From Sulfurimonas sp. HSL3-7 (GTDB lineage Bacteria > Campylobacterota > Campylobacteria > Campylobacterales > Sulfurimonadaceae), in assembly GCF_039645985.1 (NCBI RefSeq), contig NZ_CP147919.1, forward strand, positions 434,001-498,000: a stretch of DNA of 64,000 nt, in the 5' to 3' direction. The notes below the pieces were generated by a model. It worked only from the letters and a program-made list of their open reading frames with translations, was not told the DNA's origin and ran no database searches. Below, in pieces: positions 1,114 to 21,383 of this stretch. The position numbers and the translations under genes are program-made. Each line of letters starts with the position of its first letter. The first letter of the stretch is position 1.

Positions 1114-2700
1114 ATGAACCCCGCAGAGATTGAAAAGTTAGGCATCCAAAACAGTGGCAATATCTTTTACAACTTAAGCTATGACGAACTGATTGATCAC
1201 GAACTGAAAAACGGTGAGTGCGCATTGGCAGAAAATGGTGCGACCATGGTCGACACAGGTATCTTTACCGGACGCAGCCCTAAAGACAAGTTCTTTGTGG
1301 ATCAAGAGCCTTCAAACAAATATATTGCCTGGGGTGATGTCAATCAGCCTATTACAAAAGAGCATTTCGACGAGCTCTATCAAATTGCCACAGCTCAACT
1401 CTCTGACAAAGATCTATATGTGATGGACCTTTTTACCGGTTCCTCGCCTGCGAGTAAACGCAATGTACGTTTCATCTCCGAGATCGCATGGCAGGCGCAT
1501 TTTGTTAAAAACATGTTCATCCGTCCGACCGAGAGCGAACTTAACGGGTTCAAGCCGGACTTCACGGTACTGAATGCCTGTAAAGCGACCAATGCACGTT
1601 ACAAAGAGATGGGACTCAATTCCGATGTCTTTGTCCTTTTCAATATCGAAGAGAATGTAGCGATCATCGGCGGTACCTGGTACGGCGGCGAGATGAAAAA
1701 GGGTATCTTCTCGATGATGAACTACTGGCTGCCGCTCGAGGGGAAGATGGCGATGCACTGTTCTGCCAATGTCGGCAAAAACGGTGACACGGCTCTTTTC
1801 TTCGGTCTGAGTGGTACAGGAAAGACAACACTCTCTACCGATCCGAACCGCGCGCTTATCGGTGATGATGAGCATGGATGGGACGACGAAGGTGTGTTCA
1901 ACTTCGAGGGCGGCTGTTATGCCAAGGTGATCAACCTCGATCCTAAAAGCGAACCTGAGATTCATGCGGCTATCCGCAAAAATGCGCTATTGGAAAATGT
2001 TGTCTATGACGAGGACGGCCTGGTTGACTACGATGACGGTTCCAAAACAGAAAATACCCGTGTCTCTTATCCGATCGAACATATCGAGAACCACCAAGAG
2101 GGGCTGATGGCGGGTCACCCTGAAAAGATCATCTTCCTGACGGCGGATGCCTTCGGTGTTCTCCCTCCGGTTTCTAAACTCTCAAAAGAGCAGGCAATGT
2201 ACTACTTCCTGAGCGGGTACACGGCAAAAGTCGCCGGGACAGAACGCGGCATTACCGAGCCGGTCGCAACATTCTCTGCCTGTTTCGGTGAGGCGTTCCT
2301 GCCGCTTCATCCGACAGTCTATGCAAAACTTCTCGGTGAGAAGATCGACAAGCACAACGTCGAGGTCTACCTGGTCAATACAGGCTGGAGCGGCGGTGCA
2401 TACGGTGTCGGCAAGCGCATGAGCATCAAAGATACACGCGCCTGTATCAATGCTATCCTTGACGGCAGCATTAACAACTCCGAATTCGATACGACAAAGA
2501 CCTTCCGCCTCCAAGTACCGAAAACACTGGGTGACATCAATCCAAACGTACTGAATCCTCGCAATGCATGGGCAGATAAAGATGCCTTCGATACTCAGCG
2601 TGACAAACTTGCGGAGATGTTTATTAACAACTTTACAAAATATATGACGGAAGACAGTGAATTCGATTATTCACAAGCAGGTCCGAAAGTCGGCTCTTAA
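1114..2700 (+). CDS. pckA: phosphoenolpyruvate carboxykinase (ATP)
   Basis: Converts oxaloacetate and ATP to phosphoenolpyruvate, CO2 and ADP, the entry step of gluconeogenesis. The protein has the PEPCK P-loop [11 protein letters not shown], the family signature around [12 protein letters not shown], the Asp-rich metal site GDDEHGW, and the RSPKDKF substrate-binding arginine. The reading frame is open back to a TTG at 1090, but the ATG at 1114 is better placed: AGAAGG lies about 10 nt upstream of it. That start gives 528 residues, close to the usual 520-540. The gene is flanked by a ~250 bp leader region and, from the base after its stop codon, by a dispersed stem-loop repeat. Confidence 0.96.
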
Positions 2701-2845
2701 AAAGTTCCAGCTTCGGCACACCTTGCACAAAAGTTTAGCTCTCGGCGCACAGCAGTGCGCAGTCGGCTAAACGTTTTGCACAATCTGCACCAAATCTGAA
2801 ACTTTTACAAGCTCAGTTTTTTTGAAGATGAGCTTCGCCATCTTT
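2701..2845. repeat. dispersed stem-loop element, copy R1
   Basis: Starts at the base after the pckA stop. The ends are roughly inverted (AAAGTTCCAG at the left, CTGAAACTTTT near the right). The centre is a perfect stem GCGCAC-agca-GTGCGC (2745-2750 and 2755-2760), enclosed by GTTTAGC/GCTAAAC (2733-2739 and 2766-2772). A second hairpin, AGATG/CATCT (2826-2830 and 2839-2843), is followed by TTTCTT. Compared with copies R2-R4 it lacks about 20 bp around the GGGTCTGCCCCTTCGGGT block. May act as a terminator or be a non-autonomous mobile element. Confidence 0.8.
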
Positions 2846-2908
2846 CTTAACACTTAACACTTAACACTTAACACTTAACACTTAACACTTAACACTTAAC
2901 ACTTAACA
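2846..2908. repeat. heptanucleotide tandem array, 9 x CTTAACA
   Basis: Nine exact 7-bp units with no interruption, directly joined to the right end of stem-loop copy R1 and about 30 bp before the dedA -10 box. A related but different array follows copy R2 at the same relative place. Confidence 0.95.
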
Positions 2909-2937
2909 CGAATCATCTTCGCAAACCGATAATTAGC

Positions 2938-2943
2938 TATAAT
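2938..2943 (+). promoter_or_regulatory. probable -10 box for the DedA gene
   Basis: TATAAT preceded by GC, with predicted start near 2950, about 20 nt before the ATG at 2970. The heptamer array ends 29 bp upstream, so its copy number would alter the -35 surroundings. Confidence 0.5.
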
Positions 2944-2969
2944 CATGCAACTGAATTTTTTGGATTATT

Positions 2970-3530
2970 ATGGAAGATATGCTCTCTAACCTCGTGACCT
3001 ATGGTTATATAGGTCTGTTTTTATACTCTTTGGGCGGTGGTTTTATAGCCCTTATGGCGGCAGCCGTTCTGGCTTCACAGGGGAAAATGGATCTCAGCCT
3101 GGCGATGGGCATTGCCTTTGTCGCCAATTTTATCGGTGATACGCTGCTTTTCTATATGGCGCGTTATCACAAAAACGAGATGATGAACTATCTGCGCAGG
3201 CATCGCCGTAAACTGGCACTTTCGCATCTTTTGATGAAAAAGCACGGTAGATGGGTCATCTATATGCAGAAGTTTGTTTATGGTATCAAGACCTTGATCC
3301 CGCTGGCTATCGGGATTACGAAGTATCCATTTGGCAGGTTTACGATACATAACTTTTTTGCGACGATCATATGGACTCTGGTTGTCGGTTTTGGAAGTTA
3401 TTTAGCCGGAAATGTGTTGATGAGCGGCTATGAAGCGGTTGCGGATAAACCGTATCTTGCACCGATCATCATTGTCATTTTGGGCGGAAGTATCTGGTTC
3501 TATATGTCGTGGGCGACGAAAAAACGATAA
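2970..3530 (+). CDS. DedA family integral membrane protein
   Basis: 186 residues, largely hydrophobic, with five or six predicted membrane segments. It opens with a YGYIGLFLYSLGGGFI re-entrant-type segment and has the central GDTLLFYMARY and KFVYGIKTLIPLAIG stretches, which match the DedA/SNARE-associated (VTT) fold. Family members move undecaprenyl phosphate or other lipids across the inner membrane and support proton-motive force. The acidic residue expected in the first conserved loop is replaced here by the GGGF region, so substrate assignment is open. It has its own promoter and is followed at once by stem-loop copy R2. Confidence 0.8.
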   Translation: MEDMLSNLVTYGYIGLFLYSLGGGFIALMAAAVLASQGKMDLSLAMGIAFVANFIGDTLLFYMARYHKNEMMNYLRRHRRKLALSHLLMKKHGRWVIYMQKFVYGIKTLIPLAIGITKYPFGRFTIHNFFATIIWTLVVGFGSYLAGNVLMSGYEAVADKPYLAPIIIVILGGSIWFYMSWATKKR

Positions 3531-3692
3531 AAATTCTAGCTGGGTCTGCCCCTTCGGGTATCGGCACATCTTGCACCGGAGTTTACCGCTCGACGTACCG
3601 ATGTACGTCTTCGGGTTCACTTCGTCACAATCTGCACCCAATCTGAAACTTTTATTAGTTCAGACTTTTGAAAGATGCGCTGCGCTATCTTT
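3531..3692. repeat. dispersed stem-loop element, copy R2
   Basis: Begins at the base after the DedA stop. It has the GGGTCTGCCCCTTCGGGTATCGG left block, a perfect central stem GACGTAC-cgat-GTACGTC (3592-3598 and 3603-3609), the right block CACAATCTGCACCCAATCTG, and a terminal hairpin AAAGAT/ATCTTT (3671-3676 and 3687-3692). The central stem differs in sequence from R1, R3 and R4 yet stays fully paired. Confidence 0.8.
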
Positions 3693-3761
3693 CTTTACGC
3701 TTTACGCTTTACGCTTTACGCTTTACGCTTTACGCTTTACGCTTTACGCTTTACGCTTTAC
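3693..3761. repeat. heptanucleotide tandem array, 9 x CTTTACG plus 6 bp
   Basis: Nine exact units from 3693 to 3755 and a partial tenth (CTTTAC), joined to the right end of copy R2. Unit sequence differs from the array after R1 (CTTAACA) but the period, copy number and position relative to the hairpin are the same. It lies in the gap between two convergent genes. Confidence 0.95.
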
Positions 3762-3789
3762 TTAATTCATGTTCGCCCCAAAACAGGGG

Positions 3790-4593
3790 CTATTTTTTGG
3801 CGGCTTCGAGCATGATGGCTTTGAGCTCTCCTATCTCCACCCTTAGCCTTTGTATCTCTGTCTTGGTGTGATCTTCGGTTGTCTGAACCTCGTTGATGAT
3901 GTGCGCCTCCTCCTCAGCATTGATGATGCTCATCGCATCGACGACGATTGCGACGATCAGGTTGACCATGATGAAGGTCACGACGAAGATGAAGGGGATA
4001 AAAAAGGCCCAGGCACCGGGGTATGTCTCCATGACGGGTCTGACGATCCCCATCGACCAGGACTCCAGCGTCATGATCTGGAAAAGCGTGTAGAAGGATT
4101 CGCCCAGCGTACCGAACCACTGAGGGAATGTCTCCCCGTAGAGCTTGGTCACCATGATTGCAAAGATGTAGAAAAAGAGCATCATCAGCCCGGCAATCGA
4201 GACCATGCCGGGTATGACACTCAGCAGCGCCATAACAATCTTTCTCATCTGAGGTACGACGGTGATCAGCCTGAAGAGACGCAGCACCCTCAGTACCCTG
4301 AGTATCTCGAACCCGGCCGAAACGGGAACAAGCGAAATCGCGACGACAAAAAAGTCAAAGAGACTCCACGGGTCCTTGAAAAAATCGACCCGGTAGACAT
4401 AGATCCTCAAGAGGATCTCAAGGGTGAAAACGGTGATGACGGCGATATCGAAAAAATGCAGAAAAGCGCCGTAACCGCTGACGATCACCTTGGAGGTCTC
4501 TAACCCCATCGTGATGCCGTTGATGATGATCAGCGCGATGATAAAGTTTTTGAAACCTGAGCTGTCGACAAACTGCTTGAGTGTTGAATACAC
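3790..4593 (-). CDS. bacterial voltage-gated sodium channel (NavAb-like)
   Basis: 267 residues forming one six-helix subunit of a homotetrameric inner-membrane channel. Residues 1-120 are the voltage sensor; S4 has four evenly spaced arginines in [11 protein letters not shown] (99-109). The pore filter is TLESWSM at 175-181, the BacNav signature, with the selectivity glutamate at 177. S6 (about 195-220) is followed by an acidic neck and a heptad-like helix (about 235-263) that should form the four-helix coiled coil. Similarity to the Arcobacter NavAb channel is evident along the whole chain. In swimming bacteria such channels are tied to sodium entry, pH and motility. It is monocistronic and faces the DedA gene. 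Confidence 0.95.
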
Positions 4594-7673: not shown

Positions 7674-8060
7674 ATGAAAAGAGCTGGTTTTACAATGATC
7701 GAATTGATCTTCGTTATCGTTATTTTGGGTATTTTGGCAGCCGTTGCTATTCCAAAACTTGCAGCGACTCGTGATGATGCCAAAACATCAGGTGCACTAA
7801 CAGACTTGTCAACATGTATTGCAGATGCAGGTAGTGCATTTACAGCAACAGGAACAACAGACCTGACTTCAGCAGCTTGTGTAAATGCAAACGCTGGTTG
7901 TTTTGTAATTTCTGCAGCAGACCCAGCAAGTGGTGATCTTAGTGTTGCAGGTGGCGGTCCAGATGCAGCTTTAGCATATTGTGTAGATGCGAATACAAAA
8001 GCAACTGCAAAAGGTCTAATTAAAACACATAGTTTCGGTGGATCGAACGTAATATACTAA
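7674..8060 (+). CDS. type IV pilin-like / pseudopilin protein (first of three)
   Basis: 128 residues. The class III leader is MKRAG followed by FTMIELIFVIVILGILAAVA, so prepilin peptidase would cut after Gly5 and leave Phe1 and Glu5 of the mature chain. The hydrophobic alpha1-N helix is followed by the shared motif AATRDDAK also found in the paralogue at 10906, and a small Ala/Thr-rich head with four cysteines that could form two disulfides. Preceded by RBS TAAGGAG and followed by a strong intrinsic terminator, so it is monocistronic and likely well expressed. It probably assembles into a type IV-like pilus or competence pseudopilus, but no assembly ATPase is in the window. Confidence 0.9.
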   Translation: MKRAGFTMIELIFVIVILGILAAVAIPKLAATRDDAKTSGALTDLSTCIADAGSAFTATGTTDLTSAACVNANAGCFVISAADPASGDLSVAGGGPDAALAYCVDANTKATAKGLIKTHSFGGSNVIY

Positions 8061-8419: not shown

Positions 8420-8830
8420 ATGAAAAAAAGTGCATTTACGATGATAGAACTTGTTTTTGTGATCGTAGTTCTGGGCATACTGGCGGCAATAGCTGTTCCT
8501 AAGTTGGCTGTTACCCGTGATGATGCAATGATCTCTAAAGGGCGTTCCGATGTTGCCGCCATTCGTACGGGGATCGTTTCAGAAAGACAAGCGCGGTTGG
8601 TCAAAGGTGAACACAGTTTCATCGCGCCGGATAAGTTGTCTGTTAACAAACTTTTTGACGGTGTGATGATGTACGGCATAACAGCTGGTACGGGTGATGG
8701 TCACTGGAGCGGTGGAGGGACAAGCTATACGTATAAGATAAAAGGTGAGTCAAATGTATTTACTTATACACAAGCTACCGGAAAGTTTGAATGTACTTCA
8801 GGTTCATACTGCTCAAAATTAACTGATTAG
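8420..8830 (+). CDS. type IV pilin-like / pseudopilin protein (second of three)
   Basis: 136 residues with leader MKKSA then FTMIELVFVIVVLGILAAIAVPKLA. The residue before the cleavage point is Ala instead of the usual Gly, while Glu5 is kept. The alpha1 helix is followed by VTRDDAMISK, aligned with TRDDAK in the other two copies, and a head domain with two C-terminal cysteines (CTSGSYC) that could close a D-region-like loop. The pattern FxYTQATGKFxC is typical of Campylobacterota pseudopilins in the transformation/secretion (Cts-like) machinery. It has its own promoter. Confidence 0.88.
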   Translation: MKKSAFTMIELVFVIVVLGILAAIAVPKLAVTRDDAMISKGRSDVAAIRTGIVSERQARLVKGEHSFIAPDKLSVNKLFDGVMMYGITAGTGDGHWSGGGTSYTYKIKGESNVFTYTQATGKFECTSGSYCSKLTD

Positions 8831-13918: not shown

Positions 13919-14040
13919 AAGTTCCAGCTGGGTCTGCCCCTTCGGGTATCAGCGCATCTTGCACCGAAGGCAGACATTCTACGCACAGCAGTGCGTTTTC
14001 GGCCTGACTTCGGCACAATCTACACTAAATCTAAAACTCT
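13919..14040. repeat. dispersed stem-loop element, copy R3
   Basis: Begins directly at the dnaB stop (AAAGTTCC shares the A of TAA). Left block GGGTCTGCCCCTTCGGGTATCAGCG, central stem ACGCAC-agca-GTGCGT (13981-13986 and 13991-13996), outer stem CCGAAG/CTTCGG extended by CAG/CTG (13964-13973 and 14004-14013), right block CACAATCTACACTAAATCT. It lacks the 3' hairpin and heptamer array of R1 and R2; a separate small hairpin TCTCTTTAAGAGA follows. Confidence 0.8.
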
Positions 14041-14102
14041 TAAATCCCTTCTCTTTAAGAGAAATTTTCACTATTATTTAAACAAAATAAAACAATATTG
14101 GT

Positions 14103-21192: not shown

Positions 21193-21359
21193 AAAGTTCC
21201 AGCTGGGTCTGCCCCTTCGGGTATCGGCGCATCGTGTGCAAACATTTTGCTCTCGGCGCACAGCAGTGCGCAGTCGGCAAAACATTTTCCACAATCTGCA
21301 CCAAATCTGAACCTTTCAAAAAATCAGTTTGGAATCAGGTGAGCTACGCCACCTTTCTA
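21193..21359. repeat. dispersed stem-loop element, copy R4
   Basis: Left block AAAGTTCCAGCTGGGTCTGC continuing through CCCCTTCGGGTATCGGCG, central stem GCGCAC-agca-GTGCGC (21256-21261 and 21266-21271), outer stem TTTTGC/GCAAAA (21245-21250 and 21277-21282), right block CACAATCTGCACCAAATCTG, and 3' hairpin AGGTG/CACCT (21337-21341 and 21350-21354) followed by TTTCT. No heptamer array follows. Confidence 0.8.
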
Positions 21360-21383
21360 TAATCCCTTTACCCTCATTTCCGA

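What the first reader, a model, noticed from the sequence alone, without database searches (positions are those of the whole stretch)
2846..3761. Two heptanucleotide arrays with different units, same copy number and same position after the stem-loop element
Nine exact CTTAACA units (2846-2908) and nine exact CTTTACG units plus 6 bp (3693-3761) each directly follow the 3' hairpin of copies R1 and R2. Equal period and number but different unit suggests independent amplification at a defined spot, as in the heptameric STRR repeats known from cyanobacteria. The first array lies about 30 bp before the dedA -10 box, so a change in unit number might alter its expression.
Basis: seen in the sequence. 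Interest (0 to 1): 0.6.

Follow-up and report, generated by a model that had tools for sequence, protein, structure and literature searches.

The report
Seven-base arrays at hairpin feet
Beside copies of a hairpin repeat that begins at gene stop codons, this bacterium and its relatives grow pure tandem arrays that differ in sequence from place to place but almost always have a seven-base unit, which gives a natural experiment on why seven-base repeats are so common in bacteria.

Summary
In detail: (CTTAACA)9.1 at 2846-2909 and (CTTTACG)9.9 at 3693-3761, both pure, each directly 3' of a mini-hairpin that ends a dispersed element. It is a genus-wide rule. In 400 kb of systematically sampled own genome the only exact tandem arrays (periods 2-20, at least 3 copies) were three 7-mers, all at this hairpin's foot. 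Over all fetched genus loci there were 49 distinct arrays of period 7, three of period 6 and none of any other period up to 24. Among 34 arrays with a recognisable hairpin there are 20 unit types; C exceeds G in 33 and ties in one. The element (a covarying ~108-nt hairpin plus the mini-hairpin) starts at a stop codon in 26 of 27 copies. Orthologous sites show gain, loss and unit change, and array-less tails show no trace of 7-periodicity, so arrays are born and lost cleanly in place. Units are not fully independent: they resemble each other and the element's own tail. Equal copy number is coincidental (3 to 68 genome-wide). Promoter tuning of dedA is possible at one site but not general. Best reading: a slippage hot spot at a hairpin foot with a strict 7-nt step of unknown cause. 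An unrelated element in another family shows the same geometry.

The parts
2700..2807 (+). Copy R1: main hairpin of the dispersed element, starting at the pckA stop codon (2698-2700)
   Evidence: RNA fold -37.7 kcal/mol, z -4.95; model R1 match; 20 of 33 consensus pairs have compensatory changes over 13 copies
2824..2845 (+). Mini-hairpin of R1 (GAAGATGAGCTTCGCCATCTTT), 5' boundary of array 1
   Evidence: model R2 match 2809-2848; fold -7.4 kcal/mol
2846..2909 (+). Array 1, (CTTAACA)9.1, pure
   Evidence: unfolded as RNA, 0 kcal/mol
2938..2943 (+). TATAAT, possible -10 box of dedA, 28 bp after array 1
   Evidence: read in the sequence; not picked up by the simple promoter scan, which found only as many sites as shuffles
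2970..3530 (+). dedA-like gene (VTT domain), downstream of array 1 and upstream of R2
   Evidence: Pfam PF09335, E 8.8e-14
3529..3652 (+). Copy R2: main hairpin of the element, starting at the dedA stop codon, with an extra ~21-nt hairpin module (about 3542-3562)
   Evidence: fold -35.0 kcal/mol, z -2.33
3670..3693 (+). Mini-hairpin of R2 (GAAAGATGCGCTGCGCTATCTTTC), 5' boundary of array 2
   Evidence: model R2 match 3656-3695; fold -8.5 kcal/mol, z -3.26
3693..3761 (+). Array 2, (CTTTACG)9.9, pure
3790..4593 (-). Convergent ion-channel gene beyond array 2; a terminator-like hairpin lies at 3775-3790
   Evidence: Pfam PF00520, E 4e-40
13919..14042 (+). Third copy of the element in the window, without mini-hairpin or array
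21194..21361 (+). Fourth copy in the window, with mini-hairpin but no array (tail CTATAATCCC...)

Best explanation
The arrays are the amplified tail of a dispersed 3'-UTR hairpin element. The element starts at a gene's stop codon, folds into a ~108-nt hairpin, ends in a short second hairpin, and is followed by a short G-poor tail. The foot of the second hairpin is a hot spot for slippage (replication or repair synthesis) that repeatedly duplicates 7 nt of that tail. The arrays expand, stay homogeneous, and are lost cleanly, independently at each copy. Shown: location, strict period, G-poor strand, turnover between species, lack of relics. Inferred: that slippage is the process, that the hairpin promotes it by stalling or by folding of the nascent strand, and that the 7-nt step reflects the polymerase rather than a dedicated enzyme. 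Most arrays are probably a by-product without a selected function; array 1 may incidentally alter dedA expression because it lies just upstream of a possible -10 box.
For: Position: 34 of 44 distinct genus arrays have the mini-hairpin ending between -6 and +10 nt of the array start, mostly at 0-1 or at 8 after a TCTATAAT-like spacer. Period: 49 of period 7, 3 of period 6, none other up to 24; own sample 3 of 3. Turnover: orthologous copies carry a different unit (pckA-dedA: CTTAACA here, ATTTCCC x11.3 in L117, none in L118 and L119), the same unit in three cases, or no array (9 of 15 own arrays have an array-less ortholog in G003). No relics: lag-7 identity in 58 array-less tails is 0.280 against 0.274 +/- 0.009 for shuffles, and only 1 tail has a 2-copy 7-mer. 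Seed: single-copy tails of array-less copies read CTTAACG, CTTAGCA, CTTAACA, the same as array units. Unit similarity does not follow similarity of the element cores (Mantel r -0.03, p 0.30).
Against: Ordinary slippage does not by itself give one period: seeds of 5, 6, 8 or 9 nt should also amplify and almost never do. The G-poor strand always runs outward from the hairpin (33 of 34, one tie), but array-less tails are also C-rich (27 of 31), so the bias may come from the seed. No within-species length variation could be examined, so slippage rates are inferred. Most related genera sampled show no such arrays.
Confidence: 0.6

Rival explanations
1. A dedicated enzyme with a 7-nt ruler makes the arrays: a reverse transcriptase or HUH-type nuclease/transposase that acts at the hairpin and copies or transfers the adjacent 7 nt repeatedly, much as LINE-type reverse transcriptases recognise a 3' stem-loop and leave short terminal tandem repeats (own knowledge).
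For: Strict period with free unit sequence, fixed position at a hairpin, directional strand composition, all-or-none arrays. A retron-like reverse transcriptase next to the rdgB homologue is found in 6 of 8 genus genomes nearly full length and in a seventh in part, and its RT domain in no other sampled genus of the family. Y1 transposases are present. In G039, with similar arrays, a retron RT is also present.
Against: Co-distribution with one genus is a single evolutionary event. The G039 enzyme is an ordinary retron I-C protein, not an orthologue, and G051 has two RTs but no 7-mer arrays in 100 kb. Y1 transposases also occur in genomes without arrays. Nothing ties either enzyme to the arrays.
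Confidence: 0.13
2. The element with its array is a selected transcription terminator or insulator: the hairpins end transcription of the upstream gene and the G-poor, unstructured array is a loading site for Rho or a single-strand-binding protein.
For: Element starts at the upstream stop codon in 26 of 27 copies and fills the gap to the stop of the convergent gene in about nine cases; the hairpin is conserved by compensatory changes; array 1 is C-rich, G-free and unfolded as RNA.
Against: More than half of the element copies have no array (58 of 91 tails), arrays at orthologous sites are often missing in sister species, and length varies from 3 to 68 copies. This fits a functional hairpin better than a functional array.
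Confidence: 0.15
3. Array 1 is a phase-variation switch: changes in unit number move upstream DNA relative to the dedA -10 box and change its expression.
For: The array ends 28 bp before TATAAT; a pure 9-copy array can change length in principle.
Against: Most own-genome arrays are between convergent gene ends; dedA orthologues in L118 and L119 have the element but no array; no consensus promoter is detected above shuffles.
Confidence: 0.06
4. The arrays were carried to each site as part of the mobile element and have only drifted since.
For: Units at different loci are related, and CCATTCA occurs at six own-genome loci.
Against: Array-less copies contain no decayed arrays; unit similarity is independent of core similarity; orthologues differ in presence and unit.
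Confidence: 0.06

Closest known systems
Heptanucleotide long simple sequence repeats of bacteria (Mrazek 2007, as summarised in PMC4679880 and PMC4692102)
   Same: 7-bp unit, intergenic, tandem; heptamers are the commonest long SSR class in many genomes; a 7-nt polymerase contact was proposed as the cause
   Different: Here arrays are confined to one spot, the foot of one element's hairpin, with many unit sequences
Cyanobacterial STRR heptamers (Calothrix, Nostoc)
   Same: Several different heptanucleotides in one genome, tandemly repeated
   Different: No hairpin-element anchor was described in the text I could read; cyanobacterial sequence was not analysed here
TAACTGA repeats of Beggiatoaceae (PMC4679880)
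   Same: Intergenic heptamer arrays, up to 43 copies in some genomes
   Different: One fixed unit, mostly just upstream of start codons; related heptamers rarely amplified
GGGAATC repeats of Xanthomonas (PMC4692102)
   Same: Heptamers, lengths differ between sister species at the same genes, closer to the 5' neighbouring ORF than to the downstream one
   Different: One G-rich consensus unit, often in inverted pairs; interpreted as G-quadruplexes
YPAL/RU-2 elements of Yersinia (PMC2229807)
   Same: 168-bp dispersed palindromic element whose targets span or adjoin dyad symmetries, expressed together with upstream genes
   Different: No heptamer arrays mentioned in the passages read
MITE with a minisatellite in Porphyromonas gingivalis (PMC4596501)
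   Same: MITE associated with a tandem repeat
   Different: A minisatellite inside the MITE (only title and start of abstract were seen)
Tandem repeats of Borg elements (PMC9879509)
   Same: Recently formed, rapidly evolving, independently arising arrays (abstract)
   Different: Archaeal extrachromosomal elements; pervasive rather than tied to one dispersed hairpin element

Membership tests
Heptameric long simple sequence repeats | Pure tandem array with a 7-bp unit | tested here: met
Heptameric long simple sequence repeats | Intergenic location | tested here: met
   window genes
Cyanobacterial STRR | Same unit sequences as the cyanobacterial classes | not tested
   The three Calothrix sequences were not printed in the passages read; L035's unit equals GTGATTA, a heptamer reported for Helicobacter pylori
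MITE-like / palindromic dispersed element | Multicopy, dispersed, non-coding | tested here: met
   About 30 or more own-genome copies
MITE-like / palindromic dispersed element | Stem-loop conserved by covariation | tested here: met
   20 of 33 pairs with compensatory changes
MITE-like / palindromic dispersed element | Target-site duplications and an identified mobilising transposase | not tested
   No empty/filled site comparison was made; Y1 transposases exist but are not linked
Phase-variation (contingency) locus | Length polymorphism between strains or passages | not testable with these tools
   One genome per species is held
Phase-variation (contingency) locus | Array placed to affect a promoter or reading frame | tested here: inconclusive
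   True in position for array 1; most own-genome arrays lie between convergent genes
LINE/SINE-like 3' tail (stem-loop plus terminal tandem repeat) | Stem-loop directly followed by a short tandem repeat | tested here: met
LINE/SINE-like 3' tail (stem-loop plus terminal tandem repeat) | A reverse transcriptase that copies the element | tested here: inconclusive
   A genus-specific retron-like RT exists; no link shown

The most novel reading that the evidence does not exclude
A hairpin-guided enzyme with a 7-nt ruler (possibly the genus-specific retron-like reverse transcriptase, or a Y1 nuclease) actively synthesises the arrays by copying whatever 7 nt follow the hairpin, and such enzymes underlie the unexplained excess of heptamer repeats in bacteria.
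Probability: 0.1. Interest if true: 0.92.

Novelty: new variant of a known kind. Interest (0 to 1): 0.6.

Why it matters
Bacteria show an unexplained excess of 7-bp tandem repeats, attributed without test to a polymerase contact length (PMC4679880, PMC4692102). Here dozens of natural replicates share the same hairpin anchor and period while the unit varies, with array-bearing and array-less orthologues. That makes the question experimentally tractable: delete or move the hairpin, change the tail, remove candidate enzymes, and see whether 7-mers still form.

Tried and rejected
Rfam on the arrays and elements: nothing credible. Relic-array hypothesis: rejected by lag analysis. Arrays travelling with core lineages: no Mantel correlation. 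General heptamer richness of the family: rejected; period-7 arrays appear only in G032 (1) and G039 (8) among 16 relatives outside the genus, 1.43 Mb sampled. Equal copy number as a rule: rejected. RT hypothesis: kept only as a low-probability rival because the G039 RT is an ordinary retron and the genus distribution is one event; Rfam found no known RNA upstream of the genus RT. A Nostoc plasmid control was not found under the accession tried. Promoter scan: uninformative.

Full report
Observation. Each begins one base after a short hairpin. The genes are pckA, then R1 and array 1, then a dedA-like VTT-domain gene, then R2 and array 2, then a convergent ion-channel gene. The window is G000:C1:434001-498000 of a complete 2.87-Mb genome; the MAGs encoding the nearest dedA relatives are labelled Campylobacterales or Helicobacteraceae.

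The element. DNA and covariance-model searches find about 30 or more copies in the own genome, and it is present in all eight sampled genomes of the genus; one weak match was found in the other 52 relatives. The core is a ~108-nt hairpin with 33 consensus pairs, 20 of them with compensatory changes among 13 copies. The R1 copy folds at -37.7 kcal/mol, z -4.95. A second short hairpin, AAGATGAGCTTCGCCATCTT, follows. In 26 of 27 copies the stop codon of a co-oriented upstream reading frame ends within -5 to +10 nt of the element's first base; the other is at -24. Some copies carry extra hairpin modules nested at various points.

Arrays belong to the element. In twenty systematic 20-kb stretches of the own genome there are only three exact arrays (at least three copies, at least 18 bp, periods 2-20), all of period 7 and all at the mini-hairpin. 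Over all fetched loci of the genus, 49 distinct arrays have period 7, three have period 6, none any other period up to 24. Of 44 distinct exact period-7 arrays of at least 20 bp, 34 have the mini-hairpin ending between -6 and +10 nt of the array start; several of the other ten have a degenerate hairpin or one interrupted by a nested module, but a few, such as the 3.3-copy array in L040, are not at the element. Copy numbers run from 3 to 68.

What varies. The 34 arrays comprise 20 unit classes. On the strand where the hairpin is 5', C outnumbers G 74 to 12; C exceeds G in 33 units and ties in one. Own-genome units are closer to one another than random heptamers of equal composition, and CTTAACG, CTTAGCA and CTTAACA also occur as single-copy tails of array-less copies, so the unit seems to be the element's own tail. 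Array-less tails are also C-rich (27 of 31).

Turnover. At pckA-dedA the sister MAG L117 carries (ATTTCCC)11.3 next to the element, while L118 and L119 have the element and no array. Across orthologous sites three pairs share the unit (CTTAGCA 4.3 versus 4.3 copies; CTTCACG twice), several differ (for example TTCACTA x20 versus TTTTCTA x3), and most own arrays lack a counterpart in G003. The 58 array-less tails show no 7-nt autocorrelation (0.280 against 0.274 +/- 0.009) and almost no two-copy intermediates. Unit similarity is unrelated to core similarity. Arrays therefore appear and vanish cleanly, much faster than the element.

Generality. Sixteen relatives outside the genus, 1.43 Mb sampled, contain nine period-7 arrays, eight of them in G039, a different family of the order. 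There an unrelated 100-bp element, absent from a congener, has a hairpin ATCAGCTTCGCTGAT followed at distance zero by ACTACCC, ACTTCTC, ACTGCTC or ACTTTTC arrays; most copies also have CATTGGT/CATTGGG arrays at a fixed left boundary. The same geometry has thus arisen with another element and other units.

Mechanism. Slippage in 7-nt steps at a hairpin foot explains homogeneity, turnover and position. It does not explain why only 7. Earlier authors suggested the polymerase contact length for the general heptamer excess (PMC4679880, PMC4692102). An enzyme ruler is the more exciting alternative. A retron-like reverse transcriptase beside the rdgB homologue is found nearly full length in six genus genomes and in part in a seventh, and not elsewhere in the sampled family, but that is one evolutionary event, and the G039 RT is an ordinary retron I-C, so I give this about 0.1. 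A selected terminator role is plausible for the hairpins, less so for arrays that are absent from more than half of the copies. Tuning of dedA is possible at that one site; most own-genome arrays lie between convergent genes, often ending within a few bases of the convergent stop codon.

Limits. The genome-wide claim rests on sampling (about 14% of the genome) and targeted searches, not on a full scan. The loci behind the 49-to-3 count were mostly fetched because they hold the element, so that count describes the period rather than the association; the unbiased evidence for association is.

Noticed in passing
L314:4166-5740 (G000:C1 about 240662-242236): A retron-like reverse transcriptase with a charged linker and a C-terminal region (apparent membrane segment, then a domain shared with many other proteins of the order) sits near an rdgB-like gene in several genomes of the genus (identity to the G001 protein 59-69%); no RT domain of this kind in other sampled genera of the family. 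Possible uncharacterised retron or housekeeping RT.
   Followed up: partly
G039 (L286-L309): A 100-bp dispersed element with 7-mer arrays at both ends at fixed boundaries (left CATTGG[TG], right ACTNNNC), over 20 copies in one genome and absent from a congener.
   Followed up: partly
L054, L055, L205, R2 (window 3542-3562) and others: Small hairpin modules (GGGTCTGCCCCTTCGGGTATC; AACAAGGGTACCGCTCGCGTAGCGATGTTTCC; AGCACGACTCACGATTTAGTCGTTCGCTG) are nested at different points of the element, as if palindromes insert into palindromes.
   Followed up: no
L029, L035, L043 (own genome): The outer stem of the element differs between loci but stays largely paired (e.g. ATTTTTGTT/AACAAAAAT in L035), which could mean insertion into the loop of local terminators.
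   Followed up: no
G000:C1 arrays: Array length seems to depend on unit class: CTTNNCN arrays mostly 53-69 bp, CCATTCA arrays mostly 120-477 bp.
   Followed up: no
window 7674-8060 and 8420-8830: Two neighbouring open reading frames with type IV pilin-like N-termini (GFTMIELIFVIVILGILAAVAIPKL).
   Followed up: no
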